Shown here piece after piece: positions 1 through 26,157 of a DNA stretch of 64,000 nt. The position numbers and the translations under genes are program-made. The notes beneath the pieces are model-generated. The model made no database searches. It saw only the letters and a list, made by a program, of their open reading frames with translations, and was not told the DNA's origin. Source of the stretch: Thermococcus sp. AM4 (GTDB lineage Archaea; Methanobacteriota_B; Thermococci; Thermococcales; Thermococcaceae); NCBI RefSeq assembly GCF_000151205.2, contig NC_016051.1, positions 682,001 through 746,000 of the forward strand, written 5' to 3'. How positions within the stretch are numbered: the stretch's first letter is position 1; each line of letters opens with the position of its first letter.

Positions 1-1993
1 ATTCACACCCGATGAGATACAGGCCATCAGGGACTGGTTCGCCCAGGGCGGCAAAGTCCTCTGGGTAGCAGCTGACAGCGACTACGGAAGCGGCGTCCAG
101 GCCCAGGACATAGCGGACAGCCTCCTCGAGCAGCTCGGATACGGAAACCTTAGAGTCGACCTCTGTTCAGTTGAAGACCCGAGCAGCAACGCCGGCGCAG
201 GATACCGTGTTGTTGGTCACGTTAACCCCGATCCTGACACACCCTTCAGGGGAATGCTCACCGAGGGCTTCCTCCACGGTGGAAAGGTCCTCTACCACGG
301 TCCTGGTGTTGTTGCCTGGGTTGACGAGAACGGAACCTGGCACCCGCTCAACGAGACCTCAAAGCCGCCACTCACCTACAGGATTGTGGTGACCAGCGAG
401 AACGGTACGATCGTCGAGAACAACGACCCAATGGCCAACGCTTACCTCGCCGGTGACACTGGAGTGTTTACCCTTCTCGCGGCCCAGATCGTCCCGCTCA
501 ACGGTACCCAGAGCCTGCTCATCGTCAGCGGCGAGAGCCCGTACGGTGATTATGAGCCAACCTGGAGCCCGCTTTACCACGGGGTCGCGCTTGACGGTCC
601 ACAGTTCGTCAGCAACATACTCCACTGGGCGGCGGTAGTCGCCAAGTACGGTGCGCCCGAGAAGGTGTTCTCGATCTCGGATCCCGTTGGTGACGACCAC
701 GGTCCGGGAACCTACACATATCCAACCGACCCCGTCTTCAACAAGACCGGACTCTTCGACCTTACCGGTGTGGACATCCTCAAGGCCGGTGACAAGTACA
801 TATTCAGCTTCCACTTCAAGAACCTCGGAGGCAACCCGTGGAACGGACCGAACGGCTTCAGCCTGCAGATAATCGAAGCCTACTTCGACTTCAAGGACGG
901 AGGCAACACCTCAGCAATAAAGATGGCCGACAATGGACCCGGAAGCAACGTTAACCTCGACCCGAACCACCCGTGGGACCTCGCCTTCAGGGTTTACGGA
1001 TGGGGCAAGGCCCTCGTTCTTCCGAACGGAACCGTTCTTGACGACATCGACGTGTTCGCCGACCAGGGCCAGAACACCATCAACGTTGTCGTTCCGGCCA
1101 AGTACTTCGGCGACGGCCTCAAGGTTGAGGGCATCAAGTTCCCGAGGCTTGCCGTTCTCGTTGGCAGCCAGGACGGTTACGGTGTTGACCAGTGGCGTGA
1201 TGTTCAGGTTAACGCTTCCCAGTGGAGGATTGGTGGTGGTGACGCTGACGCTATTATAGCTGGCGTTGCCCCGCGCGTCATGGACCTCCTCGTCCCAGAC
1301 TGGTTCTCCCCAAGCCAGGAGGAGCAGCTCAGCAGCTACAACGCCAGCGCAGGAAAGAGGGCCACCGTTGACATGATCCCGGTCGTTCCAACCGGCTACC
1401 TCACGATAACCAGCGATCCGGTTAACGCCACCGTTACCATCGACGGAACCGTCGTCGGAAAGACCCCCATAGAGAAGCTTGAACTCCCGGCCGGACTTCA
1501 CAACGTCGTCCTCAAGCTCGACGGCTACAAGGATGAGGAGTTCAGCGTCTCAATCCAGGCCGGAAAGACCCTCGAGGTTCCGGTGACCCTCTCAAAGCTC
1601 ACCGGAATGCTTACCATAATCACCGACCCGAGCGGCGCCGAGGTCTACATCGACGGCAAGAAGGTTGGAGAGACCCCGCTCGAGCAGTACGTCCTTCCGA
1701 TCGGAACCCACAAGGTCGTGATCAAGAAGGACGGCTACAAGGAGGAGAGCTTTGACGTCTCCATCCAGGCCAACAAGGAGCTGAAGTTCACCTACACCCT
1801 CAGCCCGATTCAGACAACTACTACCACGACCACTACCACGACCACCACAACAACTACAACTACCACCAGCACCACCGAGTCCACAACGACTACCACTACC
1901 ACGACCACTACCGGTGGTGGCAAGGGCTTCTGCGGTCCGGCCGCCATAGTCGGCCTCGCAATAATCCCGCTCCTCCTCAGGAGGAGGAAGTGA
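1..1993 (+). CDS. Large cell-surface protein with DOMON-like, two PEGA domains and CGP-CTERM anchor (5' partial)
   Basis: The reading frame is already open at base 2 and runs 663 codons to TGA, so the true start lies outside the window. The first ~110 codons look like a GATase/DUF4350-type fold. From about codon 225 to 450 there is a beta-rich region like the DOMON-type C-terminal domain of glucodextranase and amylopullulanase, with an acidic GDDHGPG motif. Two PEGA repeats follow (about 1390-1590 and 1600-1800), each with a YIDG or TIDG plus GxTP pattern. Then come a Thr-rich, likely glycosylated stalk (about 1814-1911) and a tail with FCGPAA, a hydrophobic helix and RRRK. That tail is the CGP-CTERM signal known in Thermococcales, so the protein should be anchored outside the cell. 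A role in polysaccharide binding or use is inferred from the DOMON-like part only. Confidence 0.85.
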   Translation, partial: FTPDEIQAIRDWFAQGGKVLWVAADSDYGSGVQAQDIADSLLEQLGYGNLRVDLCSVEDPSSNAGAGYRVVGHVNPDPDTPFRGMLTEGFLHGGKVLYHGPGVVAWVDENGTWHPLNETSKPPLTYRIVVTSENGTIVENNDPMANAYLAGDTGVFTLLAAQIVPLNGTQSLLIVSGESPYGDYEPTWSPLYHGVALDGPQFVSNILHWAAVVAKYGAPEKVFSISDPVGDDHGPGTYTYPTDPVFNKTGLFDLTGVDILKAGDKYIFSFHFKNLGGNPWNGPNGFSLQIIEAYFDFKDGGNTSAIKMADNGPGSNVNLDPNHPWDLAFRVYGWGKALVLPNGTVLDDIDVFADQGQNTINVVVPAKYFGDGLKVEGIKFPRLAVLVGSQDGYGVDQWRDVQVNASQWRIGGGDADAIIAGVAPRVMDLLVPDWFSPSQEEQLSSYNASAGKRATVDMIPVVPTGYLTITSDPVNATVTIDGTVVGKTPIEKLELPAGLHNVVLKLDGYKDEEFSVSIQAGKTLEVPVTLSKLTGMLTIITDPSGAEVYIDGKKVGETPLEQYVLPIGTHKVVIKKDGYKEESFDVSIQANKELKFTYTLSPIQTTTTTTTTTTTTTTTTTTSTTESTTTTTTTTTTGGGKGFCGPAAIVGLAIIPLLLRRRK

Positions 1994-8459: not shown

Positions 8460-10658
8460 TCACTGCTGCGGGCAGACGTCCTTCTCGGTCGGCGGGTTCG
8501 GGTCGAGGCCCTTCCTCTGGCGTATCTGCCTGATTATCTGCTGGGCGAGCTCGTTCGGAACCCTCTTGAAGCCCGCGTGCTCGGTTGTCCAGAGGGCCTT
8601 TCCGCTGGTGGCTCCACGGATGGCTCCGGCGAACCCGAACATCTCGGCAACCGGGGCCTCGCCGATTATGATCATGACCTCGCCCTCCTGCCTCATGTCG
8701 ATGAGCTGACCGCGCCTCTGGTTGAGCTCCCTGCTGACGGCACCCATGTACTCGTAGGGTATGTTGATGATGACCTTCTGGTAGGGCTCGTAGAGGACCG
8801 GACCAGCCTTCATCATGGCGCAGTGGATGGCCGTCCTGATGGCCGGGTAGATCTGGGCCGGACCGCGGTGGACGTTGTCCTCATGGATCTTGGCGTCGTG
8901 GAGCCTGACGATGACCTTCATGACGGGCTCTTTAGCCAGTGGTCCCTCGTCCATCGCCATGTGGAAACCGTCAACCAGGAGGTCCATGACCTCGTTGAGG
9001 TACTGGATACCCTTGGTGTTGTCGAAGAACATGTTGCCGTTGTAGACGTCGACGATGCCCTTGGCAAGCTCGTAGTCCATGCCGAGCTCCGCCAACTTCT
9101 TGGCGACCTCCTTCGGGTTCTTGGGCCTGCCCTCGGGGATTATGCCCTCCCTTATTGCCTCGTAAATCTCGTCGGGCATCGGCTCGACGGTGATGTAGAA
9201 CCTGTTGTGCTTGTTCGGGGACTTTCCTTCGACGATCGGGCTCTTCTTGGTTACGCTCTCGCGGTAGACGACGATCGGCGGTGAAACGTCAACGTCGAGC
9301 TTCCACTCGGTCTTGAGCCTGTAGAGCTTTACCTCGAGGTGGAGCTCACCCATACCGCTGAGGAGGTGCTGGCCGGTCTCCTCGTCGATCTTGACGTGAA
9401 GGGTCGGGTCCTCCTTGGCGAGCTGTCTCAGAGCCTCGATGAGCTTGGGCAGGTCCTTAACGTTCTTGGCCTCTATGGCCACGGTAACGACGGGCTCGCT
9501 GGTGTAGTGGAGAGCCTCGAAGGGCTCGATCTTCTCAACTGAGACCGTCTCACCGGCCATCGCATCGCGCAGTCCTGTGACGGCGACGATGTTTCCAGCG
9601 GGAACTGCTTCCATGTTGATCCTCTCGGGACCCATGTAGATACCGACCTGCTGGATTCTGGCCTTCCTCTTGCTGTTGATGAGGTAGACCTCCTGACCGG
9701 TCTTGACGGTACCGCTCCAGACGCGGCCGGTAGCAACCTCACCGGCGTGCTTGTCGAGGATGATCTTGGTGACGACCATGACCATCTTACCCTTCGGGTC
9801 ACACTTGAGCATGGCCTGGCCGACGTCGCTGTTTATGTCTCCCCTCCAGAGGTGCGGGATCCTGTACTTCTGGGCCTCAAGCGGGTTCGGGAGGTGCCTG
9901 ACGACCATATCGAGGACGACGACGTGAAGCGGGGCCTTCTGGCGGAGCCCCTTGAGGTCGCCCTTGTTGGTGAGCTCGACGATGTCCTTGAAGGAAACGC
10001 CGGTCTTCTTCATGAACGGGACGCTGAGGGCCCAGTTGTAGTAGGCCGAACCGAAGGCGACGCTACCGTCTTCAACTTTGACCATCCACTGGCTCTTGAA
10101 CTCCTCGGGGGCGTAGCGCTTGATGAGCCTGTTGACGTCGGTGATTATCTTCGCGAACCTCTGGAGTATCTCGTTCGGGCCGAGCTTGAGCTCCTTGATG
10201 AGACGGTCAACCTTGTTGATGAAGAGAACCGGCTTGACGTACTCCCTGAGAGCCTGCCTGAGGACGGTCTCGGTCTGGGGCATAACTCCCTCAACGGCGT
10301 CCACAACTATAATCGCACCGTCGATGGCACGCATGGCCCTGGTAACGTCACCACCGAAGTCAACGTGACCCGGGGTGTCGATGAGGTTGATGAGGTAGTC
10401 CTGGCCCTCGTAGTTGTGGACCATCGAAACGTTGGCCGCGTTGATCGTAATACCCCTCGCCTGCTCCTGCTCGTCGAAGTCAAGGACGAGCTGCTTTCCG
10501 GCGAGCTCTTCGCTGATCATTCCTGCTCCGGCGAGCAGGTTATCGCTCAAAGTCGTCTTACCGTGGTCAATGTGAGCGGCGATACCCATGTTCCTGATTC
10601 TCTCAGGCTGGGTCATCAACTCCTTAATCTTCGCAATCATCTCTTCCCTTCTTCCCAT
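8460..10658 (-). CDS. fusA: Translation elongation factor 2 (aEF-2)
   Basis: A 732-residue GTPase that moves tRNA and mRNA through the ribosome. Motifs in order: G1 [10 protein letters not shown], switch I region [13 protein letters not shown]3 [11 protein letters not shown]4 NKVDRL, then the domain II-V layout. In domain IV, the loop [11 protein letters not shown] carries the histidine that becomes diphthamide in archaea. The length is normal. GGTGGTGCGTT precedes ATG 10658. It is transcribed alone from its own TATA box, and codon choice looks strongly biased, as expected for an abundant protein. Confidence 0.98.
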
Positions 10659-10705
10659 AACGCACCACCTTTGGATGAGCTTGTCGGCTTAACTTAAAAG
10701 GCTCA

Positions 10706-10715
10706 GTTATAAAGC
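10706..10715 (-). promoter_or_regulatory. TATA box of EF-2
   Basis: On the minus strand the sequence reads GCTTTATAAC, about 48 bases before the EF-2 ATG. This leaves a leader of roughly 20 bases that contains the GGTGGT ribosome site. Confidence 0.6.
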
Positions 10716-10751
10716 TTTTCCCCGAAAGCGGAAGGGTGTTTGGGAAGAGGA

Positions 10752-11831
10752 TCAGAGACCGAGGAGTCCCCGAACTAACTTTTGAACCCTCTCAACCTCC
10801 GAACTCCTGGCGTAAACCCCCCACCTCCAGTGGGTGTCCTTCAGATCGAAGAGCGAGCGGACCAATGGAGAAACGTCGCTCAGCCTCTTCAGCTCTCCGC
10901 CCGCTAAAACGAAGGCGTTCTTCTCTTCGAACTTCGGCTTCGGCGGGTAATCGAGCAGCGCGAGGTGCCCGAACTCGGCTTCGAGCTCTTTCCTCAGCTC
11001 TTCAACGAGGTCCTTTTCAAGGGGTTCGGAGCTCCAGACGACGCGCTTGTAGAGTCTCCGTGAGTCTATTGCACGAACGAGCTCCCTAACCTCGGCCCTC
11101 TCACTCCTCCTAAGCCTGGCCACGAGGTCGATCTCGTCCATGAGGCGTATCTCGTCGAGCGGAATTCCCTCCAGCTTAACTGCCTCAACGAGCATTGCCC
11201 CCGCTATTCTGGAAACGTGGTGGAGGTAAACGGTCGGGTACATCATGCTCCTCGCCAGGAGAAGGTTCTGGGCTGCCATGATGCCCTTCTCCAGAACCAC
11301 GAGCCTCTCCCCGTCCCAGCGGAGGTTCCTTATCAGTCTGTCAAGATCCACGAGGCCGTAGGCGACGCCGGTGTAATAAGCGTCCCTGACGAGGTAGTCC
11401 ATTCTATCGGCGTCGATGTCGCCGCTGACGACGGGATGCTTTAGGAGCCGGAGAAACTCCCCGATGGAGTAGGATTCCTCGATGATATCCCTGATCTTAC
11501 CGTTCTTGACGAACCACTCCGTGTTCCCCTCGTGCCTTGGATAGATGACCTCAAGGGTGTGGGAGAAGGGGTACTGGCCGAGATCGTGGAGCAGAGCGGC
11601 GTAGATAACCCCCTCATCAACATCGGGGTTGCGGTTCGCTATCTTCCCGGCGAGGTGAAACGTTCCGAGGGAGTGCTCGAAGCGGGTGTGCCTGGCGGTG
11701 GGATAGGCGAGAAACACGAAACCCAGCTGGGTTATCCTCCTGAGCCTCTGAAACTCCGGAGTATCGACGAGCTTAACCGCGAAATCGTCGAGCTCTATCG
11801 TCCCATGAACGGGGCCATGAACGAGCTTCAT
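10752..11831 (-). CDS. HD-domain phosphohydrolase (dGTPase/SAMHD1-like)
   Basis: A 359-residue protein of the COG1078 type. The metal motifs are present: RHTRFEHSLG supplies the first His, LLHDLGQYPFSH the HD pair, and DADRMDYLVRD the last Asp. Known relatives hydrolyse deoxynucleoside triphosphates; the substrate here is inferred. The C-terminal third is alpha-helical and charged. The start is ten bases downstream of the RelE stop, so it can be read from the same leftward message as UPF0179 and the toxin-antitoxin pair. Confidence 0.88.
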   Translation of the reverse strand: MKLVHGPVHGTIELDDFAVKLVDTPEFQRLRRITQLGFVFLAYPTARHTRFEHSLGTFHLAGKIANRNPDVDEGVIYAALLHDLGQYPFSHTLEVIYPRHEGNTEWFVKNGKIRDIIEESYSIGEFLRLLKHPVVSGDIDADRMDYLVRDAYYTGVAYGLVDLDRLIRNLRWDGERLVVLEKGIMAAQNLLLARSMMYPTVYLHHVSRIAGAMLVEAVKLEGIPLDEIRLMDEIDLVARLRRSERAEVRELVRAIDSRRLYKRVVWSSEPLEKDLVEELRKELEAEFGHLALLDYPPKPKFEEKNAFVLAGGELKRLSDVSPLVRSLFDLKDTHWRWGVYARSSEVERVQKLVRGLLGL

Positions 11832-11840
11832 AGGGATCCC

Positions 11841-12104
11841 TCAGTAAACGTTCTCGCGCTTTCCAATTTTCAGAACCTTTATCACTTTTTCACGTTTCTG
11901 ATACTCGAATATTATCCGGTATTCCCCCACCCTGAGACGGTATACGTTTTGGTATCCCCTAAGCTTTTGGACATCGAGCCTCGCAAGAGGAAAGAAAGCC
12001 AGTTTAGAAATGCGATCCTTAATTAACTCCCTTTCCTTTTCAGGAACATCTAAAAGCTCCTTAGCAGCCTTTCTGCTGATGAGGATCTTGTTCTCAAAGC
12101 TCAT
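11841..12104 (-). CDS. relE: RelE/ParE-type toxin
   Basis: An 87-residue basic protein. The hallmarks of archaeal RelE are all visible: KAAKELLDVP near the start, a central LRGYQNVYRLRVGEYRIIFEY block, and a KVLKIGKRENVY end. Family members cut mRNA on the ribosome. Its ATG lies inside the end of the antitoxin gene (11-base overlap), the usual arrangement that links their translation. It sits in the middle of an otherwise housekeeping leftward transcript. Confidence 0.9.
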   Translation of the reverse strand: MSFENKILISRKAAKELLDVPEKERELIKDRISKLAFFPLARLDVQKLRGYQNVYRLRVGEYRIIFEYQKREKVIKVLKIGKRENVY

Positions 12105-12276
12105 CCTTTACCACGTCCCAGCTAAGGAACTCGTCTTTCCTTCGTTCCTCAACGGCCTTCTTCTCCCATTCCTCCGGTTCAACTTCTTCTATAAGCTGGA
12201 GGTTGACCTCAATAAGCTCGCGGAGGAACCTCTCCAGCTCGTCAACCCTGTGGAGTATATCAGCAAGGGTGTTCAT
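12094..12276 (-). CDS. relB: RelB-type antitoxin
   Basis: A 60-residue acidic, helical protein beginning MNTLADILHRVDELERF, with a C-terminal tail EFLSWDVVKDEL that probably wraps the toxin. The identification rests on position, size and charge opposite to RelE; archaeal RelB sequences vary a lot. ATG 12276 is chosen over GTG 12279 because GGAGGTGGTGTG stands before it. It would bind the toxin and may repress its own operon. Confidence 0.8.
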   Translation of the reverse strand: MNTLADILHRVDELERFLRELIEVNLQLIEEVEPEEWEKKAVEERRKDEFLSWDVVKDEL

Positions 12277-12312
12277 CACACCACCTCCGGGAATGGAAAA
12301 AGAAAGAAAACC

Positions 12313-12741
12313 TCAATCCTTCTCCCTGACGACGCGGACGAGCTTGTACCTCTTACCACCGCACTCGACGTCGTCGAGGATCTCAAGGATCTTTACGGTA
12401 TCACCTTCAAAGAGTCCCTCCGGCTTTACGAGGTCTGCTTTCTCAGGATCCGGACAGTCCACGAACTTCAGCGTCACCTTTGAGCCCACTATGGCCGTCC
12501 TTGGATCAACGAGTAGCTCTATCGCCGGCTCGACGACCTCAACGACCCTGACCTTGCCCTCGTGCAACGGGCAGGAGTGCTCTATGTTCCTGACCTTGAC
12601 TATCTTGTAGCGCCTTCCGGGTTCGAGGTTTCCAACGCAGACCCTTGCCAGCCTGCAGCTCTTGCACGGTTCAGCGGGCCCGTAATAGATGAACTCAACC
12701 CCGGGCTTTGCAAGCTTTTCCCCAACCAGTGTGATGACCAC
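12313..12741 (-). CDS. UPF0179 family protein
   Basis: A 142-residue archaeal protein of unknown function. It carries paired cysteines ([10 protein letters not shown] near residue 25 and a later [11 protein letters not shown]) that could bind a metal, and a family-typical [11 protein letters not shown] segment. GTG 12741 is preferred to GTG 12750 because GGGAGG then sits eight bases before it, and the start then reads VVITLVGEK as in Pyrococcus. It is first in the leftward run with RelB, RelE and the HD protein. Confidence 0.85.
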
Positions 12742-12774
12742 CTTAAACACCTCCCAGCTCTGAAGACATGACCG

Positions 12775-13815
12775 TTAGATGACTCCCGTGATTTTAGCGG
12801 CCTTCTCCGCTGCCTCCCACGTGAGGCCCTCCTTCCCGAGGATGGTGTAGCGTTCGGGCCTTATGGTGTGGGCTATCGTGAGGGCCTTGATTATAATCTC
12901 GGGATCGATTCCAAGCTCGTATGCGTTGGTAGGTGCGCCCACCCTCTTTAAGGTTTCCCTAACGCGCTCCCATTTGAGACCGTGAAGGTAGGCCATTATT
13001 ATCGTCCCGACCCCGCACTGCTCCCCGTGGAGGGCCGGCTTTGGAGCGAGCATGTCGAGGGCGTGGCTGAAGAGGTGCTCCGCCCCGCTCGCCGGTCTTG
13101 AAGAACCCGCTATGCTCATCGCAACGCCGCTGCTTATGAGCCCCTTGATGACCTTCCTCACGCTCTCCTCGTTGCCGAGCCGGATTATATCGGCGTTCCT
13201 CATGACCATCTTGGCGCTCATGAGCGAGAGAGATGCCGCGTACTCGCTGTAGTACTCGCCGCGAATTCTATGGGCCAGCTGCCAGTCCTTGACTGCGGTT
13301 AAGTTGCTTATTATGTCCCCGACCCCGGCCGCGAGGTAGCGGTAGGGCGCGGTTTTTATGACCTTAACGTCCGCTATGACCGCTATCGGGGGCCTGGCCT
13401 TCACCGACGTTTTGGCCCCCAAGTCCCTTATTGAGGCGTTGGCGCTCGCTATTCCATCGTGCGAAGCGGTGGTTGGAAAGCTGACGAAAGGAATTCCCAG
13501 GCGGTAGGAGGAGAGCTTTGCGACGTCGATTATGCTGCCCCCTCCAACCGCGATCATCCAGTCGGCGGGGGTTTCCCGGGCTATTCTCATAATCCTTTCC
13601 ACTTCATCCATCGTGGCCCCCTTGACGACGACACCAGAAACTTCAAACTCCCTGGAAAGGTTCTCCTCAACCTCCTCTCCCGCTATCTTTTTCGTTCTGG
13701 GGCCGTAGAGAACGAGAGCCCTCTCACCGAGCTTAAGCCTCTTCGCAACGCTCACGGTTTCTCCAGCCAAACTCTCGCCCAAGAGCACTTCCCGCGGAAG
13801 CTCCATCAGGTGCAC
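12775..13815 (-). CDS. egsA: sn-Glycerol-1-phosphate dehydrogenase
   Basis: A 346-residue NAD(P)H-dependent enzyme that reduces dihydroxyacetone phosphate to sn-glycerol-1-phosphate, the backbone of archaeal ether lipids. Seen in the sequence are the nucleotide-binding AVGGGSIIDVAK, the FVSFPTTASHDGIAS block, and metal-site regions DIISN, AEHLFSHALD and LHGEQCGVG. GTG 13815 is chosen because GAGGTG lies six bases before it and the product then begins with HLMELPREV, as in Pyrococcus; GTG 13824 is the alternative. It has its own promoter (TTTTTAAGTCC). Confidence 0.95.
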   Translation of the reverse strand: MHLMELPREVLLGESLAGETVSVAKRLKLGERALVLYGPRTKKIAGEEVEENLSREFEVSGVVVKGATMDEVERIMRIARETPADWMIAVGGGSIIDVAKLSSYRLGIPFVSFPTTASHDGIASANASIRDLGAKTSVKARPPIAVIADVKVIKTAPYRYLAAGVGDIISNLTAVKDWQLAHRIRGEYYSEYAASLSLMSAKMVMRNADIIRLGNEESVRKVIKGLISSGVAMSIAGSSRPASGAEHLFSHALDMLAPKPALHGEQCGVGTIIMAYLHGLKWERVRETLKRVGAPTNAYELGIDPEIIIKALTIAHTIRPERYTILGKEGLTWEAAEKAAKITGVI

Positions 13816-17130: not shown

Positions 17131-17203
17131 TGTTTCCTCTCATACAGGGAAATATTTAGGGAATGTTTCCCGACATAGAGGGAAATATTTAAATGATGTT
17201 TCC
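17131..17203 (+). promoter_or_regulatory. Tandem 33-bp repeats with internal inverted repeat, AAA ATPase promoter
   Basis: Two units of 33 bases (17131-17163, 17164-17196) share TGTTTCC, nine variable bases, and GGGAAATATTTA; a third TGTTTCC stands at 17197-17203. Within each unit TTTCC and GGAAA form an inverted repeat. The second AAATATTTAAAT (17183-17194) serves as the TATA box, about 25-30 bases before the ATG. The spacing of about three DNA turns suggests a regulator bound side by side on one DNA face, possibly the ATPase itself. Confidence 0.65.
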
Positions 17204-17217
17204 TCCTATGAGAGACC

Positions 17218-18474
17218 ATGCTTGAGAAAGACCTTGTCCTTCAGTATCTGGTGGATTTTCAGGAGAAGGAGCTCCCCGACTTCATCGAGAGGGAACTGAG
17301 GGTTCCCTTAAAAAAGGACTACGTGATAGCCGTAATCGGACCGAGGAGGAGCGGAAAAACCTTCTACTTCTATCAGCTGATGAGAGACCTCCCGAGGGAG
17401 GAGACCCTGTACCTCAACTTCGAGCATCCGATATTCGAGGGTTTTGAGACAAAGGACATCGTTGAAGTCCTAAAGCTCCACCGCGAGGCCTTTGGAGAGC
17501 CAAAATACGTTTTCCTTGACGAGGTTCAGAACGTTCATGGCTGGGAGAGAATGGCCCGCTACCTCAACGATGAGGGGTATCACACCTTTCTCACGGGTTC
17601 CTCCTCAAAGCTCCTCAGCGGGGAGATAGCCACATCTATGAGGGGAAGATCCCTGACGTATACCCTCCTCCCATTCAGCTTTCGGGAGTTCCTGAGGGCT
17701 AAAGGTGTCCATCCCAAGAAACCACTGAGCTCAAAGAAAGAGGCCATGGTTAAATCCATGCTCACGGAGTATCTGAACTGGGGGGGCTTTCCTCAGGTCG
17801 TGCTTGAGACAAACGAGACAGTACGGGAGAAGCTCCTCTCCGAGTACCTTGATATGGTGGTTTACAAGGACATAGTGGAGAGGTACGGTGTCAGAAACCT
17901 CCACGTCATGAAAATGCTCATCCGTTCCCTCATGCGCTCCTTTGCCAAAGAGTTCAGCGTCCATGCGTTCTACAACACTCTAAAGTCTCAGGGGATGAAG
18001 GTGGGCAAGGGGGTTTTGTACGAGTACCTCAGCTACGTGGAGGACTCGATGAGCGTTTTTCTCCTCAAGAAGTTCAGCTATTCACTGAAGGTCTCGGAAC
18101 TGTCAATCCCGAAGGTCTACCCAGTGGATGCAGGCTTCACGAGGATGTTCTCCTTCAGTCCCGACATCGGGAGGCTGATGGAACTGGCCGTGTTCCTCGA
18201 ACTCAAAAGGAAAGGACGGGAGGTTTACTATTACAAGAACCATCGGGAGGTGGATTTCGTCATCGTTGAGAGAGGCATGCCTATAGAGCTGATACAGGTA
18301 ACCTACGCGTTTGACCGGAGCGACATAAAGCCAAGGGAAGTGGAGGGTTTAAAGAAAGCCGGAGAGAAACTGAAAGTCGACAGAAAGCTCGTGATCACGT
18401 GGGACTACTCGGATGAGAAGGAGGGAGTAGAATTCGTCCCCCTGTGGAAGTGGCTCCTGAGAGGAAACCTTTAA
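17218..18474 (+). CDS. AAA-family ATPase with DUF4143 domain
   Basis: A 418-residue protein of a family common in archaea. The N-terminal AAA domain has Walker A GPRRSGKTF (about residue 41) and Walker B YVFLDEVQN (about residue 99), then the arginine-rich ATSMRGRSLTY. The C-terminal half has the DUF4143 pattern, ending in EVDFVIVE and ELIQVTYA, reminiscent of PD-(D/E)XK nucleases. The function of the family is unknown. The start has no ribosome site and sits about 25-30 bases after TATA, so the transcript is probably leaderless. The repeats upstream are specific to this gene in the window. Confidence 0.88.
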   Translation: MLEKDLVLQYLVDFQEKELPDFIERELRVPLKKDYVIAVIGPRRSGKTFYFYQLMRDLPREETLYLNFEHPIFEGFETKDIVEVLKLHREAFGEPKYVFLDEVQNVHGWERMARYLNDEGYHTFLTGSSSKLLSGEIATSMRGRSLTYTLLPFSFREFLRAKGVHPKKPLSSKKEAMVKSMLTEYLNWGGFPQVVLETNETVREKLLSEYLDMVVYKDIVERYGVRNLHVMKMLIRSLMRSFAKEFSVHAFYNTLKSQGMKVGKGVLYEYLSYVEDSMSVFLLKKFSYSLKVSELSIPKVYPVDAGFTRMFSFSPDIGRLMELAVFLELKRKGREVYYYKNHREVDFVIVERGMPIELIQVTYAFDRSDIKPREVEGLKKAGEKLKVDRKLVITWDYSDEKEGVEFVPLWKWLLRGNL

Positions 18475-18506
18475 GTGCCCCGCCCCGACTCTTACACGGT
18501 GGTCGG

Positions 18507-19325
18507 ATGGGCATTCAGGAGTTCTTCCAGCGGTACTTCGTGGATCCAATAAAGTACAACCAGGGCTACAACCCCGTGAACACGCTCGTGTACGCGATAA
18601 TTCTCGGAATCGCGGTTCTGCTGCTCTACCGGTTCCTAAAGCGTCTTGGAGTGAAGGTGGACGAGAGGTTCTTTGTGGCGCTGATGCCCTACATCTTCCT
18701 CGGTCCGCTGATGAGGGCCATGACCGACGTAGGAATGCTCCCGAGGACCTACCTCACCGTGAGCCCAGGCGGCTACTTCGTGATAGCTGCCTTCGCGATA
18801 GCTTCCCTTCTCATCGTGTGGAGGCACGTTGGTGCAGGGGAGAAGCTGTATCCCCTCTACCGCGACGTTGGTTTTCTCCTCCTCGCCGGTCTCGTCTTCA
18901 TCCTGATAATAAACCTCGACAAGGTGAACTTTCGGTGGGATTACTTCAAGTACTTCATCCCATCTCTCCTCGCGGCCGAGGCCTTCATATGGGCCCTCTC
19001 CCGGAAGTTCGAGCTCGTGAGGAACAACAGGCTGCTTTTCTACACCCACTTCTACGACGCGACGACGACCTTCGTGGGAATACAGTTCTTCGGCTACTGG
19101 GAGCAGCACGTCCTGGCGAGGACGCTGATAAACCTTACGGGAACTGCGGCGGTGATGTACCTCGAAAAACTGCTCATCCTCCTTCCAATAGTCTGGATCC
19201 TGGACGTCGAGATGAAGGACGAAGACCCGGATCTGATAAACTTCGTTAAGCTGGCCATGTTCATACTCGGCTTCGGGCCGGGGACGAGAAACCTGTTAAT
19301 AACGCTCATGGGGGTGGGAAGATGA
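18507..19325 (+). CDS. DUF63 family membrane protein
   Basis: A 272-residue protein with about eight hydrophobic helices. Motifs typical of archaeal DUF63 are visible, including FFQRYFVDPI at the start, GPLMRAMTDVG, and HFYDATTTFVGI. Its function is not known. ATG 18507 is chosen because GGTGGTCGG precedes it and a TATA-like CCTTTAAG lies in the end of the ATPase gene. Its stop overlaps the ATG of the phosphatase gene (ATGA), so the four genes to 21401 can be one operon. Confidence 0.85.
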   Translation: MGIQEFFQRYFVDPIKYNQGYNPVNTLVYAIILGIAVLLLYRFLKRLGVKVDERFFVALMPYIFLGPLMRAMTDVGMLPRTYLTVSPGGYFVIAAFAIASLLIVWRHVGAGEKLYPLYRDVGFLLLAGLVFILIINLDKVNFRWDYFKYFIPSLLAAEAFIWALSRKFELVRNNRLLFYTHFYDATTTFVGIQFFGYWEQHVLARTLINLTGTAAVMYLEKLLILLPIVWILDVEMKDEDPDLINFVKLAMFILGFGPGTRNLLITLMGVGR

Positions 19326-20107
19326 ACGATCCCTCCGCTGTTATGTGGAACGAGGTTGTCTTTTCCCTCGCGAAGGATGTTGAAAAGGCAGTTATGCCTA
19401 TATTCGGAAAACCCAAGGCGGGAAAGACCGTCGGAACGAACGTCAGCGGGGACGTAACAAAGTACGTGGACAAAGTCGCCGAGGAAATGGTTCTTGAGAG
19501 GCTGAAGGTTCTCGGGATAAACGTCGTTAGCGAGGAAGTTGGCTCCATTGACGTTGGAAGCGATTATACAGCAGTCGTCGATCCAATCGACGGATCCTAC
19601 AACTTCGCCGCTGGCATACCGATCTTCGCCTTCAGCTTCGCCCTGTTCCGGAAGGAAAAGCCCGTTTACGCAGCCCTCTACGAGTTCGCCACAGGAAACT
19701 ACTACGAGGCGATCCCCGGCAACGGGGCGTTTCTGAACGGGAGGCCGATCAAAGTCCAGCGGGTTCCGGCATCGAGGGCGGCGATAAGCTTCTACACCCG
19801 GGGGAGGGGAGTTGGGCTTATAGGCCGCGTTAAGAGGATTCGGGTTCTTGGGGCGATAGCCGTGGAACTTGCCTACCTCGCGAGGGGCACGCTCCAGGGC
19901 GTGGTGGACATAAGGAACTACGTGAGGCCGACGGACGTTGCTGCCGGGGTCGTGCTCGTGCGTGAGGCGGGCGGAGTTGTCGTCGACGACACGGGAAAGG
20001 AGGTAAGCGTGCACCTGAGCGCCGAAGAAAAGATGAACCTCATAGCGGCGAGCGACCGGGAACTGCTCGAAATAATCTTGGAAGAGGTGAACGATGGTGG
20101 GCGTTGA
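19322..20107 (+). CDS. Inositol-1-monophosphatase / fructose-1,6-bisphosphatase family enzyme
   Basis: A 261-residue Mg-dependent phosphatase of the archaeal dual IMPase/FBPase group. The metal-site motifs are VVSEEVGS (Glu pair), VVDPIDGSYNF and the late PTDVAAG, where most family members have WDxAAG. In archaea it can remove phosphate from inositol-1-phosphate, a precursor of the solute di-myo-inositol phosphate, and from fructose bisphosphate. Which is used here cannot be told from sequence. It overlaps DUF63 at the start and rhomboid at the end by 14 bases. Confidence 0.88.
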   Translation: MNDPSAVMWNEVVFSLAKDVEKAVMPIFGKPKAGKTVGTNVSGDVTKYVDKVAEEMVLERLKVLGINVVSEEVGSIDVGSDYTAVVDPIDGSYNFAAGIPIFAFSFALFRKEKPVYAALYEFATGNYYEAIPGNGAFLNGRPIKVQRVPASRAAISFYTRGRGVGLIGRVKRIRVLGAIAVELAYLARGTLQGVVDIRNYVRPTDVAAGVVLVREAGGVVVDDTGKEVSVHLSAEEKMNLIAASDRELLEIILEEVNDGGR

Positions 20108-20720
20108 GGACCTCGCAAGGGCCGTCAAACACGCGTGGCTCACCTACACGATAGCCTTCATCAACGTTGCGGTTTACCTCTACGAGCTCTACTTGAGCGG
20201 CTCAATAGCGGGGCCGTCCCTCTACGCCCTCCTGAAGCTCGCGCTCGTGAACGTCCTCGTAACCCAGTACCACGAGTGGTGGAGGCTCTTCACGGCGATG
20301 TTCGTCCACCTGAGCTGGATTCACTTAGCTATGAACACGTTCTTCCTGATCTACCTTGGAAGCCAGCTCGAGCTCTTCGTGGGCAGGTGGAGGTACCTCG
20401 TCCTCTACATAACGGCCGGCCTGTTCGGCAACGTCCTGAGCGTTGCCCTTATGGACCCGTACACGATAAGCGGGGGAGCGAGCGGGGCCCTCTTCGGCAT
20501 AGCGGGGGCCCTGATAATGATAGAGGGCATACTGAAGAAGAACATCCAGAGCGCACTCGCCAACGCCTTCTTCCTCTTTTTGATAAACAGCTGGATGCCC
20601 CACGTCAACGCTATAGCCCATCTGGGCGGGCTGATCGTTGGAATAGCCCTCGGCTATATCTATGGCAACTACGTCAAGGAGAGAATGGCCCGGATGCTCT
20701 ACTGGGAGGAATTCTACTGA
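20094..20720 (+). CDS. Rhomboid-family intramembrane serine protease
   Basis: A 208-residue membrane protein with six predicted helices. It carries the catalytic serine in ISGGASGALFG and the catalytic histidine in NAIAHLGGLIVG, with the conserved WWRLFTAMFVH and HLAMNTFFL loop and helix. Rhomboids cut substrates within the membrane. The start lies in the end of the phosphatase gene, so the two are translationally coupled. No extra domains are present. Confidence 0.92.
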   Translation: MVGVEDLARAVKHAWLTYTIAFINVAVYLYELYLSGSIAGPSLYALLKLALVNVLVTQYHEWWRLFTAMFVHLSWIHLAMNTFFLIYLGSQLELFVGRWRYLVLYITAGLFGNVLSVALMDPYTISGGASGALFGIAGALIMIEGILKKNIQSALANAFFLFLINSWMPHVNAIAHLGGLIVGIALGYIYGNYVKERMARMLYWEEFY

Positions 20721-20729
20721 GGTGGTGGT

Positions 20730-21401
20730 ATGAAACGGGACGAAAAGTGGGATGGGGTTTACTCCTTTGAGGACTCGCCCTTCATAATGGAGGTGCTGAC
20801 CGAGCTTAGGAACAAGAACACCGACAGCATAGCCTTCAGGAAGGGCCTCGTAAAGCTTGGAAGGTACATGGGGTACGAGCTGACGAAGACGATGGACGTT
20901 GAGGAGATCGAAGTCGAAACGCCCCTGGAAAAAACGACGGGAATCCTCGTAAAGGACAGGAGAAACGTCGTCATCATAACCGTCCTCAGGGCGGCGATAC
21001 CCCTGATGGAGGGCCTGATTAAGGTCTTCGAGCACGCGAGGGTCGGCATAGTCTCGGCCTCGCGCGGGAAAGCCCCGAAGTTCGAGATCGAGATGAACTA
21101 CATCAAGATACCGAACGTAAGGTCAGAGGACACAGTCATAGTGGCTGACCCCATGATAGCCACTGGCTCGACGCTGATCAGGGTTCTCGGGGAGGTGTCC
21201 AAGTACGGAAAGCCGAAGAGGCTCATAGTTCTCGGAGTGCTGGCGGCTCCGGAGGGGATAGACAGAATCAAGGAGGCCTTCCCGGAGGCGGAGATATTCG
21301 TCGCCAAGATAGACAGGGGGCTGAACGAGAAGGGCTACATCCTGCCGGGCCTTGGAGATGCCGGTGACAGGGCCTTTGGGGCGCCTCTGAAGAACCCCTG
21401 A
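20730..21401 (+). CDS. upp: Uracil phosphoribosyltransferase
   Basis: A 223-residue pyrimidine-salvage enzyme that makes UMP from uracil and PRPP. The PRPP loop is [14 protein letters not shown], and the uracil-binding GDAGDRAFG stands near the C-terminus; [12 protein letters not shown] is the other family mark. GGTGGT precedes ATG 20730, nine bases after the rhomboid stop, so it closes the operon. Confidence 0.95.
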
Positions 21402-21536
21402 CCGGTTCGTTCTTCTTATTCTTGGAATTTCGGGATGACGTTGGGGAGTACTTTAAGTCCAAGGGTGCGTTACGAAAACCTTATTAGCATCGGACTCAAA
21501 AATCAACTGTCTACAACCCAACCCGGAGGGGCTAAA
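21402..21536 (+). other. Intergenic leader of the Cas6-like gene
   Basis: This 135-base gap shows no gene. A weak TATA-like CCTTATTAGC (about 21479-21488) could drive the Cas6-like gene with a leader of roughly 30 bases ending in CGGAGGGG. No CRISPR repeat or spacer structure is present. Confidence 0.35.
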
Positions 21537-22277
21537 ATGAGAATCGAAATCAGGCTCAGGCCCGTTGGGGATGATCCAATCCTGCCCTTCAACTACAACT
21601 ACGAGGTGTACCGCCAGATCGTGGAGAAGATCTCGCTGATCTCACCGCCATTGGCCCAGGAAGTTGAGGTCAGCCACGTTGACCACTTCACCTTCTCCCG
21701 CATACTGGTGAGGAAGAGGGAGCTGATACCCGAGAGCGGCATAAGGATTCTCTCCGATACCGTCTCGCTGTACGTTTCGTCTCATTCTCCAGAGGTTATA
21801 GGGGCCATAGTCGAGGGATTCATGGCCAGCCCCTCCATAAGGATCGGCGAGACCGACTTCGTTGCTGAGGACGTTAAACCCCTCAAGGAGCCCAAGATAA
21901 AGGACGGAACCCTTTTCTCAACCCTGAGCCCGATAATAGTTCGCACCGTTAAGATCTCCAACAACAGGATGAAGATATGGGACCTCTATCCCAACGAGCC
22001 CACCTTCTTCGACAAGCTCCGAAAGGTCATGCTCCTCAGGTATTCGGAACTCTACGGGAGCACGCCGGAGGACTCAACCTTCAAGATCGAGGTCATCAAG
22101 TTCAAACCCGTGAGGATCCTCGTGGCTGACACCTACTACCGCGGGTCGCTCATGATCTTCCGCTACTGGGGTTCAAGGGAGATAGCACAGTTCGGCTACG
22201 ACCTGGGCTTCGGGGAGAAGACCAAGTACGGTTTCGGCATGGTCAAGGTCATCGACGAGAGCACCGAGGAAAGGTAG
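21537..22277 (+). CDS. cas6: Cas6-like RAMP protein, isolated and possibly non-catalytic
   Basis: A 246-residue protein of the Cas6 family, whose active members cut CRISPR precursor RNA. The two-RAMP layout is visible: PILPFNYNYEVY at the start, TLFSTLSPIIVRT in the middle, and the glycine-rich loop GFGEKTKYGFGMVKV near the end. Aligned by eye with Pyrococcus furiosus Cas6 (catalytic Tyr31, His46, Lys52), those places hold Val29, Val43 or Glu44, and Asp49; His47 and His50 lie nearby. No other cas gene or array is in the window. It may be a non-catalytic RNA-binding Cas6, as described in P. horikoshii, or act on arrays elsewhere. ATG 21537 follows CGGAGGGG. Confidence 0.85.
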   Translation: MRIEIRLRPVGDDPILPFNYNYEVYRQIVEKISLISPPLAQEVEVSHVDHFTFSRILVRKRELIPESGIRILSDTVSLYVSSHSPEVIGAIVEGFMASPSIRIGETDFVAEDVKPLKEPKIKDGTLFSTLSPIIVRTVKISNNRMKIWDLYPNEPTFFDKLRKVMLLRYSELYGSTPEDSTFKIEVIKFKPVRILVADTYYRGSLMIFRYWGSREIAQFGYDLGFGEKTKYGFGMVKVIDESTEER

Positions 22278-22349
22278 TCCCTTCTTCGAACTTTTTCCGA
22301 AAGGATAGAGTTAAAAAGGCAGTTCTCGGTAGTATAGTCGGGTGAGAGA

Positions 22350-23543
22350 ATGGGAAGTTTCGACGAGGTAAGCCGCGATACGGGTTACGATGATTACATC
22401 ACTTTCCTCAAGAGGAGGATAAGGCAGCTCGAACTCCAGGTCAGGACCCTGGAGGCGGACAAAGAGAGACTGGAGAGAGAGCTCTCAAGGCTTAGGACGG
22501 AGATGTCAAGGCTAAGGCAGCCGCCGGCCTTCGCGGGCAACGTCATAGAGGTTCTCGACGATGACAGGGCGATAGTCCAGAACTACAACGGACCGCGCTT
22601 CGTCGTCAGAATCGCCCCGTGGATAGAGAGGGACAAGCTGAAGCCGGGCTCAAGGGTAGCTTTAGACCAGAGGACGATGGCGATAGTCGAGCTCCTCCCA
22701 ACGGAGAAAGACCCCAGCGTCCTCGGTTTCGAGGTCATAGAGAAACCCAGGGTCACCTATCAGGACATAGGTGGTCTTGACAGACAGTTAGCTGAGCTCA
22801 GAGAGGCCGTGGAGCTTCCCCTCAAGCACCCGGAGCTCTTTGAAGAGGTTGGAATCGAGCCCCCGAAGGGTGTCCTCCTCTACGGGCCACCTGGCTGTGG
22901 AAAGACACTCATGGCCAAGGCCGTGGCGAACCACGTAAACGCCACCTTCATCCGCGTCGTTGGGAGCGAACTGGTTAGGAAGTTCATCGGCGAGGGGGCA
23001 AGGCTGGTTCACGAGCTCTTCGAGCTTGCGAAGGAGAAGGCTCCAACGATAATCTTCATCGACGAGATCGACGCAATAGGCGCGAAGAGGATGGACGAGA
23101 CGACCGGCGGCGAGAGGGAAGTCAACAGAACGCTCATGCAGCTCCTGGCCGAGATGGACGGCTTCGATCCAAGGGGAAACGTCAAGGTCATAGCGGCAAC
23201 CAACAGGCCCGACATACTCGACCCGGCCCTGCTTAGGCCAGGGCGCTTCGACAGGTTGATTGAAGTCCCGCTTCCGGACTTCCGCGGAAGGCTCGAGATA
23301 CTCAAGGTCCACACGAGGAGGATGAACCTCAGGAACGTCGATCTCAGCATCATAGCCGATATAACTGAAGGTGCCAGCGGTGCGGATCTGAAGGCGATAG
23401 CGACGGAAGCCGGAATGTTCGCGATAAGGGACAGGAGAACATACGTAACGCAGGAGGACTTCCTCAAGGCGGTTGATAAGGTCCTGGGAGCTGAGAAAAG
23501 GCTTGCCCAGGCAATAGCGATGCACGAGGTCATGTACGGCTGA
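22350..23543 (+). CDS. pan: Proteasome-activating nucleotidase PAN
   Basis: A 397-residue AAA ATPase that unfolds proteins and feeds them to the archaeal 20S proteasome. In order: an N-terminal coiled coil (about residues 15-55), an OB domain (about 60-125), and the AAA core with Walker [12 protein letters not shown], Walker [12 protein letters not shown], and arginine fingers in the [15 protein letters not shown] region. The C-terminal three residues MYG are an HbYX motif, which opens the proteasome gate. It has its own TATA-like GTTAAAAAGG upstream. Confidence 0.97.
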
Positions 23544-24636
23544 CCTTTTCTGTCCCCTTTATTACCCCCCACGCCAGGGCGTAGAGAACCGCTATGGCGA
23601 AGAATGCCTCTCTATAACCGAGCCTGTCTATAAGCCAGCCCGTGAAGTACGGCCCGACAGTTGCCCCGAAGAAACCCACCATGTTAACGAAGCCCATAAC
23701 CGGTCCGAGGTTGTCCTTTCTTGCAGTTTCGGCGGTGAAGGCTGTAACCATCGGACCGACCGAGTAGAAAGTCAGGCCGAGGGCGAGGGCGGAGATGAAG
23801 CCGGGTTTCAAGACGAGGAGAACGATTAGGAGCGCGTTTGAAAGGAAGGCGAGTTCAAGGGCCTTTCTTCCGAGCCGGTCGTAGAGAACTCCACCGGTGA
23901 GGGAACCCACTATGCCGACCAGCGAGAGGAGGGAGAAGAGGTAAGAAGCCGTTTCAACGCCCATTCCCGTCGAGGTCAGGAAGGCGACGAGGAATGTCAG
24001 AACGCCGAAGAAGGCCATCAGTGCGAGGAAGTTCGCAATCGCTAAGTTCACCGAGCCGACCTCGATTGAGAGCCTCGCCTTACCGCTTCTTTCCTCAAGA
24101 GTTCTGAGGGAGATTACGAGCAGAACTCCAACGACAGAGCTCATAACGGCCAGAATCGGGAAGGCGTAGCGCCAGCCGAGGTTCAAAGCCACAGGCACGA
24201 CAAGGAGAGGAACTATCCCGGAACCGACGGGCGGGCCGAGCATGAAGACGCCGAGGGCGGAGCCCTTCCTCGTTCCATAGGTTTCGGCTATCAGTGCCGT
24301 TGCGGGGGCGTAGTAAAGGCCGGAGAAGAAGCCGTAGAGCGCTCTGAAGGCCAGGACTTCCCAGTACTGGGAAGCGAAGAAGAGCATCGCGGAGGAAATT
24401 GAGTAGCCGAATATGCTCAGAGCGAGGAGCCTCTTCCTCCCGAAGCGGTCGCCGAGGTAACCTGCCGGAACCTGAATGAGCGCGTAGGGGAGGAGCAGGG
24501 CAGTCATGAGAAGTCCCGCCTGAGCGTTGCTCAGATGGAACTCTGCCTTTATCATCGGAAGGAGCGGGGAAACGGCCATCCTATGGGCGTAGTTGAATAT
24601 CCAGCCCAGGGTTATCAGGATAAGCGGAACGAGCAT
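23530..24636 (-). CDS. MFS transporter
   Basis: A 368-residue permease with twelve predicted helices. The MFS motif A appears after helix 2 ([13 protein letters not shown]) and again in the second half ([14 protein letters not shown]). The substrate is not evident. The frame extends to TTG 24678, but the minus strand has AACTTTTAAGCG there, which looks like the TATA box, so ATG 24636 is chosen with a near-leaderless mRNA. Its end overlaps PAN by 14 bases on the opposite strand. Confidence 0.85.
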
Positions 24637-24737
24637 GGTTTCGATGAGGAATTGAGCGCTTAAAAGTTTGTTGGACAAAGGTGGCCGACGAAAGTTTATA
24701 AGAATCCGGGCGGTAGTAACGGGGGAGGAGAGAGCGA

Positions 24738-25670
24738 ATGGTCAGCAAGCTGTTGGCGCTCGAGGCTTATCCGAGCCTCCGCGACCTGGACTTCAGAATC
24801 CTCAGGGGAGTAGAGCTCAACATGAGGCACCACAAGTGGGTGCCGTTAGAGGACATAGCGCGCTTCGCCAGGGTGGACGTTGAAACAGCCTCGTTCAGGC
24901 TCGGCAAGCTCGACGACATGTCCCTCGTCAGGAGGAGGAGCGACATAGGCTACATCGGATACCAGCTCACGATACACGGCTACGACGTTTTGGCCATAAG
25001 GGCCCTCGCGAGGAAGGGAGTCGTAGAGGCGATAAGCACGACGCAGATTGGCGTTGGGAAGGACGCGGACGTTTACGTCGGAATAACGCCAGCCGGCGAG
25101 AAAGTTGCCGTTAAGTTCAACAGGATAGGAGGCAGAACGGCTTCGCGGAGGGCTACCTACCACTCCCACGTCTTCGCCGATAAACACCACACGAGCTGGC
25201 TCTACGTTTCAAGGCTCATCGCGAAGAAGGAATACGACGCGCTGGTTCTGCTCAGCCCGATTGCGAGGGTTCCGAAGCCAATAGCCTGGAACAGGCACGT
25301 CCTCGTCATGGAGTTCGTTGAGGGAACCGAGCTGGCGGAGCTGAGGGACGACGAGCTGACGAGGGAGGAAGCCAGGGAAGTCCTCGACAGAATCCTCGAG
25401 GAGTACCTCAAGATAGTGCGCTTTGGTATAGTCCACTCGGATTTAAGCGAGTTCAACGTCGTTTTAACGGGCGACGACATCCTGATAATCGACTGGGCCC
25501 AGCACCTGACCACCGCCTATCCGGATAGCTACGAGCTGTTGAAGAGGGATTTAACGGTCATAATCAACGCCTTCAGGCGGAGGTGGCGGGTTGAGAGGAG
25601 CTTTGATGAAATCTGGCCGGCCTTCGAGAGGGCCTGGCACGAGAGCAGGGGTGAGAAGTATGGTGATTAA
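24738..25670 (+). CDS. rio2: Atypical protein kinase/ATPase Rio2
   Basis: A 310-residue RIO-type kinase used in late maturation of the small ribosomal subunit. It has the Rio2-specific N-terminal winged helix (about residues 1-90), an ATP loop IGVGKDADVYVG, the lysine in VAVKFNRIG, the hinge LVMEFVEGTEL, the catalytic HSDLSEFNVV and the metal-binding IIDWAQH. A GGGGGAGGAGAGAGCG ribosome site precedes ATG 24738, and a TATA element (AGTTTATAAG) lies at about 24692. Rio1 is also in this window at 37.7 kb. Confidence 0.95.
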   Translation: MVSKLLALEAYPSLRDLDFRILRGVELNMRHHKWVPLEDIARFARVDVETASFRLGKLDDMSLVRRRSDIGYIGYQLTIHGYDVLAIRALARKGVVEAISTTQIGVGKDADVYVGITPAGEKVAVKFNRIGGRTASRRATYHSHVFADKHHTSWLYVSRLIAKKEYDALVLLSPIARVPKPIAWNRHVLVMEFVEGTELAELRDDELTREEAREVLDRILEEYLKIVRFGIVHSDLSEFNVVLTGDDILIIDWAQHLTTAYPDSYELLKRDLTVIINAFRRRWRVERSFDEIWPAFERAWHESRGEKYGD

Positions 25671-26157
25671 GTACGAGCCCCTTAACAGGCGCGAGAGAAT
25701 CCTTAAGCTCTTCCGCGAGGCAATCGAGGCCGAGAACAGGAAGGACCTCGAAACCGCGAAGAAAAAGCTCGACGAGATACTTCACGAGAGCCTCGACGTT
25801 GAGCCGGAGTTCTACTTCGAGGCCTGCTTCCGCCTGGCGGAGATCTTCCTCCAGGAGGACAACTACCGGGGAGCGGTTAAGTGCGCGATACGTGGGACGG
25901 CGAGGGCTCCGAACGGGAACCTGTACCGGCTCGGTGTGAAGAGGCTCGGGGATATTCTGGCCGTCATAAAGGAAGCCGGGAAGCTGGATGATCTCCTGGA
26001 CGATCCCGAAAGCTTCATAAGACAGGCTGGGGAAGATGAGGAGCTCAGAACGTTTGTGAGGGCAGTCTTAAACGCGATCCAGGGGAAGAAAGTCGATGAG
26101 AAGTTTTCCCTGAAGGAGATGGAGGAGGTCATCTCCGCCCTTGAAAGCTCGAGATGA
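25660..26157 (+). CDS. Small helical TPR-like protein linked to rio2
   Basis: A 165-residue, strongly charged, mostly helical protein with at least one TPR-like helix pair (FYFEACFRLAEIFLQEDNY, then GAVKCAIRGTARAP). I do not recognise a named family. It overlaps the end of rio2 by 11 bases, with GGGGTGAGAAGT before its ATG, so it is made together with Rio2. That coupling hints at a role in ribosome assembly, but this is inference. The open frame extends further upstream within rio2. Confidence 0.75.
   Translation: MVIKYEPLNRRERILKLFREAIEAENRKDLETAKKKLDEILHESLDVEPEFYFEACFRLAEIFLQEDNYRGAVKCAIRGTARAPNGNLYRLGVKRLGDILAVIKEAGKLDDLLDDPESFIRQAGEDEELRTFVRAVLNAIQGKKVDEKFSLKEMEEVISALESSR

What the first reader, a model, noticed from the sequence alone, without database searches (positions are those of the whole stretch)
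21537..22277. Stand-alone Cas6-like protein with altered catalytic positions
The RAMP layout and glycine-rich loop are clear, but the places of Tyr31, His46 and Lys52 in P. furiosus Cas6 appear as Val29, Val43/Glu44 and Asp49. No cas operon or array is near; neighbours are upp and the proteasome ATPase. Non-catalytic Cas6 proteins are known in Pyrococcus, but their job is not settled. It could bind CRISPR RNA from distant arrays or have been moved to another RNA task.
Basis: partly seen in the sequence, partly recalled or inferred. Interest (0 to 1): 0.6.

Follow-up and report, generated by a model that had tools for sequence, protein, structure and literature searches.

The report
Core-genome Cas6 that lost its scissors
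This heat-loving archaeon carries a relative of a CRISPR RNA-cutting protein that has lost its cutting residues, and relatives that have lost their recognisable CRISPR machinery still keep it intact, so it probably does another RNA job in the cell.

Summary
The ORF at 21537-22277 (+) is a full-length Cas6-family protein in a Thermococcus-like genome. It is the ortholog of the solved non-catalytic P. furiosus and P. horikoshii proteins PfuCas6nc (3UFC) and PhCas6nc (PH0350), at 57-59% identity. The Tyr/His/Lys triad is present in 30 of 30 sampled catalytic thermococcal Cas6 and in 0 of 66 orthologs of this protein. The genome has a second Cas6 with the triad, in a cas operon near arrays.
The new part is distribution. 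The gene is full-length in 89 of 94 Thermococcaceae, and in 72 of the 74 best assemblies. Five of those 74 have no detectable Cas1, Cas3, Cas10 or other Cas6, yet keep it intact. Ortholog pairs show dN/dS of 0-0.08, and branches in four cas-less genomes are no longer than their sisters'.
Best reading: a former Cas6 nuclease, now a dedicated single-stranded-RNA-binding protein whose main job does not need CRISPR interference. The RNA partner is unknown. Residual repeats persist in four of the five cas-less genomes, so repeat binding is not excluded.

The parts
21537..22277 (+). CDS of the non-catalytic Cas6 paralog (Cas6nc type), 246 aa
21473..21488 (+). BRE/TATA-like promoter element (cgaaaaccttattagc); its core, cgaaa followed by ttatta, recurs upstream of most orthologs printed
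   Evidence: 31 upstream regions printed and read by eye; clear in most non-Pyrococcus ones, weaker in Pyrococcus-type ones; position read. Naming it BRE/TATA is from general knowledge
21525..21531 (+). Shine-Dalgarno-like GGAGGGG
21621..21623 (+). Val29, position of catalytic Tyr31 of P. furiosus Cas6
   Evidence: Tyr in 30/30 catalytic sequences, 0/66 orthologs
21666..21668 (+). Glu44, position of catalytic His46
   Evidence: His in 30/30 catalytic sequences, 0/66 orthologs
21681..21683 (+). Asp49, position of catalytic Lys52
   Evidence: Lys in 30/30 catalytic sequences, 0/66 orthologs (Asp 57, Gly 9)
22206..22238 (+). Glycine-rich RAMP loop GFGEKTKYGFG (residues 224-234)

Best explanation
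The gene encodes the Thermococcaceae-wide non-catalytic Cas6 (Cas6nc), a two-RAMP-domain protein descended from a catalytic Cas6. Shown: it keeps the fold and the glycine-rich loop, has lost the Tyr/His/Lys triad in every sampled ortholog, and is inherited as a core gene unlinked to cas loci. Shown: it stays intact in genomes without detectable Cas1, Cas3, Cas10 or another Cas6. Inferred from the PhCas6nc literature: it grips the 5' part of a single-stranded RNA in the cleft between its two domains and does not cut it. Inferred: its main duty is binding a cellular RNA (as stabiliser, carrier or regulator), with CRISPR repeats at most a secondary ligand.
For: Orthology and fold: 3UFC Z 35.7, rmsd 1.5 over 241 residues; 3QJJ Z 35.5, rmsd 1.4 over 239; phmmer 318 and 299 bits against 111-138 for catalytic Cas6. 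Triad 0 of 66 against 30 of 30. Core gene: full-length in 89 of 94 genomes, 72 of 74 best assemblies. Five genomes without Cas1, other Cas6, Cas3 over cut-off or Cas10 palm keep an intact copy; for one of them, G020, 15 Cas probes against the whole chromosome hit only this gene. Constraint: dN/dS 0-0.077 in 14 pairs; branches in four cas-less genomes not longer than their sisters'. Vertical inheritance: distances track the PAN gene, r=0.83 over 19 genomes; in a 7-genome subset r=0.64 (10 of 1000 permutations reach it) against 0.29 (113 of 1000) for catalytic Cas6. Ortholog-specific invariant residues: R55, R59, W148, Y210, T229 in 66 of 66 and K188 in 65 of 66; absent from the 30 catalytic sequences except K188 in one, and from the triad-bearing relative G114. 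RNA binding of PhCas6nc: PMC3727216, passages read.
Against: Residual repeats remain in four of the five cas-less genomes, so an array-related role is not ruled out. Four of those five are draft assemblies, and Cas5, Cas7 and Cas8 were not searched in them. The only ligand of the family that I met in the papers read is CRISPR repeat RNA. Mean net charge is +0.8 against +12.7 in catalytic Cas6, which may mean weaker general RNA binding. The gene is split by a rearrangement in G026 and not found in G058, so it may be dispensable. In the 7-genome subset its protein distances exceed those of catalytic Cas6 (0.307 against 0.235), so it is not simply 'more conserved'. No RNA partner was found.
Confidence: 0.63

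Rival explanations
1. CRISPR-linked binder: it captures the repeat 5' end of pre-crRNA or crRNA from distant arrays without cutting it, and so stores, protects or competes for crRNA alongside the catalytic Cas6.
For: PhCas6nc binds repeat RNA in the same way as catalytic PfuCas6 (PMC3727216 passages). The window's genome has three arrays with the same repeat class and a catalytic-type Cas6. Four of five cas-less genomes still hold one or more repeats of that class.
Against: Kept without relaxed constraint where no Cas1, Cas3, Cas10 or other Cas6 is detected. Not linked to arrays: 1 of 32 stretches scanned (31 around orthologs or their pieces, plus the window) has one, in G034, about 7 kb away.
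Confidence: 0.22
2. Hidden nuclease: it cuts RNA with a relocated active site, as crenarchaeal Cas6 does without the classic histidine.
For: Cas6 active sites vary between subfamilies and a histidine is not obligatory (PMC3652601 and PMC3727216 passages). New invariant basic residues R55 and R59 follow the loop that bore the triad His and Lys.
Against: The papers read call the two Pyrococcus orthologs non-catalytic or inactive. The candidate histidines 47 and 50 are not conserved.
Confidence: 0.1
3. A decaying leftover of a lost CRISPR locus with no function.
For: Loss of the triad; a split copy in G026.
Against: Full-length in 89 of 94 genomes, dN/dS 0-0.077, 64 distinct sequences sharing many invariant residues, recurrent promoter-like element and ribosome-binding site.
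Confidence: 0.02

Closest known systems
PfuCas6nc (PDB 3UFC) and PhCas6nc (PH0350; PDB 3QJJ, 3QJL, 3QJP), non-catalytic Cas6 of Pyrococcus
   Same: Orthologous, 57-59% identity, same fold at 1.4-1.5 A, same missing triad; G006 of the set carries PH0350 itself, identical to the printed chain as compared by eye.
   Different: The loop that held the catalytic His and Lys differs in length by one residue and in sequence (SHVDHF here, SPHGFW there).
Catalytic PfuCas6 (3I4H, 3PKM; TIGR01877)
   Same: Two RAMP domains, glycine-rich loop; Z 29.9, rmsd 1.6 over 224 residues to 3I4H.
   Different: No Tyr/His/Lys triad, much lower positive charge than the thermococcal catalytic Cas6 sampled (+0.8 against +12.7 on average), not in a cas operon.
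Triad-bearing Cas6 of G114, another family of the same class
   Same: Closest triad-bearing relative found outside the family, 39% identity; shares PFNYN, R136, Y151, K163, R202 and S204-M206.
   Different: Triad intact; lies near two CRISPR arrays.

Membership tests
Cas6 family (TIGR01877 / PF01881 / PF21350) | Profile match above the curated cut-off | tested here: met
   155.8 bits over 58.65; 103.1 over 23; 61.9 over 27
[quoted passage not shown]
   AlphaFold model pLDDT 93.9, Z 29.6-35.7 to archaeal Cas6 structures, loop GFGEKTKYGFG
Catalytic Cas6 endoribonuclease, PfuCas6 type | Tyr/His/Lys catalytic triad | tested here: not met
   Val29, Glu44, Asp49; 0 of 66 orthologs have Tyr, His or Lys at the matching position of the triad, apart from Lys at the His position in 3
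Catalytic Cas6 endoribonuclease, PfuCas6 type | Cleaves CRISPR repeat RNA | not testable with these tools
   needs a cleavage assay
Catalytic Cas6 endoribonuclease, PfuCas6 type | Encoded with cas genes or arrays | tested here: not met
   no array in the 64 kb window; neighbours are non-cas genes
Non-catalytic Cas6 (PfuCas6nc / PhCas6nc) | Ortholog of 3UFC and PH0350, closer than to catalytic Cas6 | tested here: met
   318 and 299 bits against at most 138; the 66 orthologs form one group in the tree, support 0.69
Non-catalytic Cas6 (PfuCas6nc / PhCas6nc) | Triad missing | tested here: met
Non-catalytic Cas6 (PfuCas6nc / PhCas6nc) | Binds single-stranded repeat RNA | not testable with these tools
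   known for PhCas6nc (PMC3727216); not shown for this protein

The most novel reading that the evidence does not exclude
A Cas protein permanently recruited out of CRISPR immunity in the ancestor of the Thermococcaceae: a Cas6 lost its catalytic triad, gained its own invariant basic and aromatic residues, and became a core RNA-binding protein of the family that outlives the loss of CRISPR interference genes.
Probability: 0.58. Interest if true: 0.62.

Novelty: new member of a known kind. Interest (0 to 1): 0.45.

Why it matters
Structures of non-catalytic Cas6 proteins were released in 2012, and I met no assigned job for them in the papers read. The distribution found here separates the gene from CRISPR interference. 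It also names the natural experiment, cas-less genomes that keep the gene, in which its RNA partner could be sought with little crRNA background. If true, it is a case of a CRISPR protein domesticated for other RNA biology.

Tried and rejected
Alternative catalytic histidines (His47, His50): rejected as not conserved. Absence of a second Cas6 as the reason for odd residues: rejected, a triad-bearing Cas6 is present. A functional link to upp: rejected, upp is nearby in only 7 of 31 genomes, the window's close relatives. A link to the proteasome ATPase gene: within about 10 kb in 22 of 31 genomes in two different arrangements; noted but not used for function, because an MraY-like glycosyltransferase gene (named by its sequence) is linked as often, 24 of 31. 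Mobile-element origin: no match in 72,556 plasmid or 50,697 phage records. A known RNA family near the gene: none at gathering threshold in window 18000-26000. An array near orthologs: only G034, about 7 kb away. A fully CRISPR-free genome as the cleanest test: not reached, G020 keeps a 6-repeat array and a 2-repeat remnant. PADLOC profiles do not tell this protein from catalytic Cas6: both match Cas6 models strongly. Papers: the paper search (10 of 10). The name Cas6nc occurs in 2 held papers. No held paper on its job or on its retention without cas genes turned up in these searches; most subscription papers are not held. Passages were read in PMC3727216, PMC3652601, PMC3432209, PMC5823998, PMC4945791, PMC3124441 and PMC12934983; none was read whole. 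I recall, but could not read, the original PhCas6nc and PfuCas6nc structure papers (not held; the DOI was from memory and differs from the one cited in PMC3727216, which I did not look up).

Full report
What is there. The ORF at 21537-22277 (+) encodes 246 residues, has a Shine-Dalgarno-like GGAGGGG at 21525-21531 and a promoter-like element at 21473-21488 whose core recurs upstream of most orthologs printed. It matches TIGR01877, PF01881 and PF21350 well over their cut-offs. Best PDB sequences are 3UFC and PH0350 (3QJJ, 3QJL, 3QJP) at 299-318 bits; other archaeal Cas6 entries follow at 111-138 bits. PMC3652601 names 3UFC the non-catalytic P. furiosus Cas6, PfuCas6nc (passages read). PMC3727216 calls the P. 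horikoshii protein the inactive homologue PhCas6nc and says that it binds the repeat 5' end in the cleft between its domains, like PfuCas6 (passages read). An AlphaFold model, made from the window protein with 28 locus proteins (24 orthologs, 4 catalytic-type), has mean pLDDT 93.9 and aligns to 3UFC at Z 35.7 and to catalytic PfuCas6 3I4H at Z 29.9.

The active site. In an alignment of 66 orthologs (64 distinct) and 30 catalytic-type thermococcal Cas6, the Tyr/His/Lys positions are Y, H and K in 30 of 30 catalytic-type sequences. In the orthologs they are L/V/I/M, E/Q/S/K/D and D/G, so none of the 66 has the matching residue at any of the three positions. The 66 are 60 loci plus six (L099-L103, L105). 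The 30 catalytic-type loci are those returned, its best matches, so they are biased to the window's genus. Position 47 is His in 48 of 66 and position 50 in 10 of 66.

The second Cas6. The same genome has a triad-bearing Cas6 at C1:475552-476286, with cas1 at 467385-468206 and ORFs that I read as other cas genes between them (names by position and recall, not by profile). A 19-repeat array lies at 464546-465784, and two more arrays with the same repeat class lie elsewhere.

Distribution. With the window protein as query, a full-length ortholog is present in 89 of 94 Thermococcaceae genomes. G026 has it in two pieces about 23 kb apart, and G053, G058, G088 and G091 have none. Of the 74 family genomes that the tool counts as at least 90% complete and at most 5% contaminated, 72 have it whole. 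This is worked out as follows: tallies 74 of 84 such genomes in the phylum with a match at 1e-40; one of the 74 is G114, outside the family, and one is the split G026. The one match outside the family at that limit, G114 (39%), has the triad and lies near arrays. So the triad was probably lost after the Thermococcaceae line split off (inference).

Retention without CRISPR machinery. Nine of the 74 lack a full-length catalytic Cas6 of the usual type: G015, G020, G031, G038, G049, G056, G057, G079, G090 (read from the table; the truncated hit in G028 was not counted as a lack). TIGR01877 finds another Cas6 in G031 and G049, leaving seven. Of these, G015 and G056 have Cas1 and Cas3. Five (G020, G038, G057, G079, G090) have no Cas1, no other Cas6, no Cas3 over cut-off and no Cas10 palm domain. 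Searches were run on 18 chosen genomes; the window's genome is a positive control for Cas3, and G026, G031, G049 and G058 for Cas10. For G020, a single-contig genome, I read the whole chromosome: 15 Cas probes hit only the ortholog at 1e-3, and one 6-repeat array plus one 2-repeat remnant remain. The repeat pattern of the window's genome is found 6 times in G020, once in G038, 11 times in G057, 4 times in G090 and not in G079. So the interference genes are gone as far as tested, but traces of arrays are not, which limits the claim.

Constraint. Fourteen ortholog pairs give dN/dS of 0 to 0.077 (several with saturated dS), five catalytic Cas6 pairs 0.089 to 0.211 (pairs chosen by me). Four of the five cas-less genomes (G020, G090, G079, G057; not G038) were compared with a sister; their branches are 0.040, 0.000, 0.000 and 0.034 against 0.058, 0.020, 0.004 and 0.042, so there is no sign of relaxed constraint. 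The G020-G072 pair has the highest dN/dS of the fourteen, 0.077, but the longer branch is that of G072, which still has cas1 and a catalytic-type Cas6. Against a simple 'more conserved' claim: in seven genomes the ortholog's mean protein distance is larger than that of catalytic Cas6 (0.307 against 0.235). What differs is that it tracks the PAN distances (r=0.64 there, r=0.83 in 19 genomes) while catalytic Cas6 does so less (r=0.29), as expected if catalytic Cas6 moves between species (the last clause is inference).

Own character. R55, R59, W148, Y210 and T229 are invariant in 66 of 66 orthologs and K188 is present in 65 of 66. All six are absent from the 30 catalytic-type sequences, apart from K188 in one, and from G114. 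Other ortholog-typical residues (Y20, N21, R136, Y151, K163, R202, S204-M206) are shared with G114 and so are probably inherited from the catalytic ancestor. Mean net charge is +0.8 (range -5 to +7) against +12.7 (8 to 18). The protein is therefore not a generic basic RNA binder; a focused binding site is the likelier picture (inference).

Neighbourhood. In 31 genomes examined (30 chosen by me plus the window), the recurrent neighbours are non-cas. The proteasome-activating ATPase gene lies within about 10 kb in 22, in two arrangements; a convergent MraY-like gene whose end reaches the gene's 3' end is there in 24; upp is there in 7. Of 32 stretches scanned, the window included, one (G034) has an array, about 7 kb from the ortholog.

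Conclusion. What it is: the Thermococcus member of the known Cas6nc group, certain for practical purposes. How it works: RNA binding without cutting, inferred from PhCas6nc. What for: most likely a cellular RNA task independent of CRISPR interference, with probability about 0.6; the RNA is not identified.

Noticed in passing
L120 (G015:C1:521001-541000), 8498-13549: A CRISPR array beside cas1-, cas4- and cas3-like ORFs; no cas6, cas5, cas7 or cas8 was noticed next to it, and the genome's only Cas6-family protein by TIGR01877 is the non-catalytic one. Possibly a natural case of arrays without a recognisable maturation nuclease.
   Followed up: partly
G020:C1:157198-157558, L135: Orphan 6-repeat array in a chromosome where 15 Cas probes find nothing but the non-catalytic Cas6.
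   Followed up: partly
G026:C1:1235386-1235676 (+) and 1258622-1259065 (-): The gene is split into two otherwise intact halves about 23 kb apart on opposite strands, as by an inversion with a breakpoint inside it, or by mis-assembly.
   Followed up: partly
window 1808-1923: Tandem ACN-rich repeats in units of 9-12 bases, which might encode a Thr-rich linker (reading frame not checked).
   Followed up: no
window 17131-17196: Two 33-nt tandem copies (76% identical) shortly before the ATPase-like ORF at 17218.
   Followed up: no
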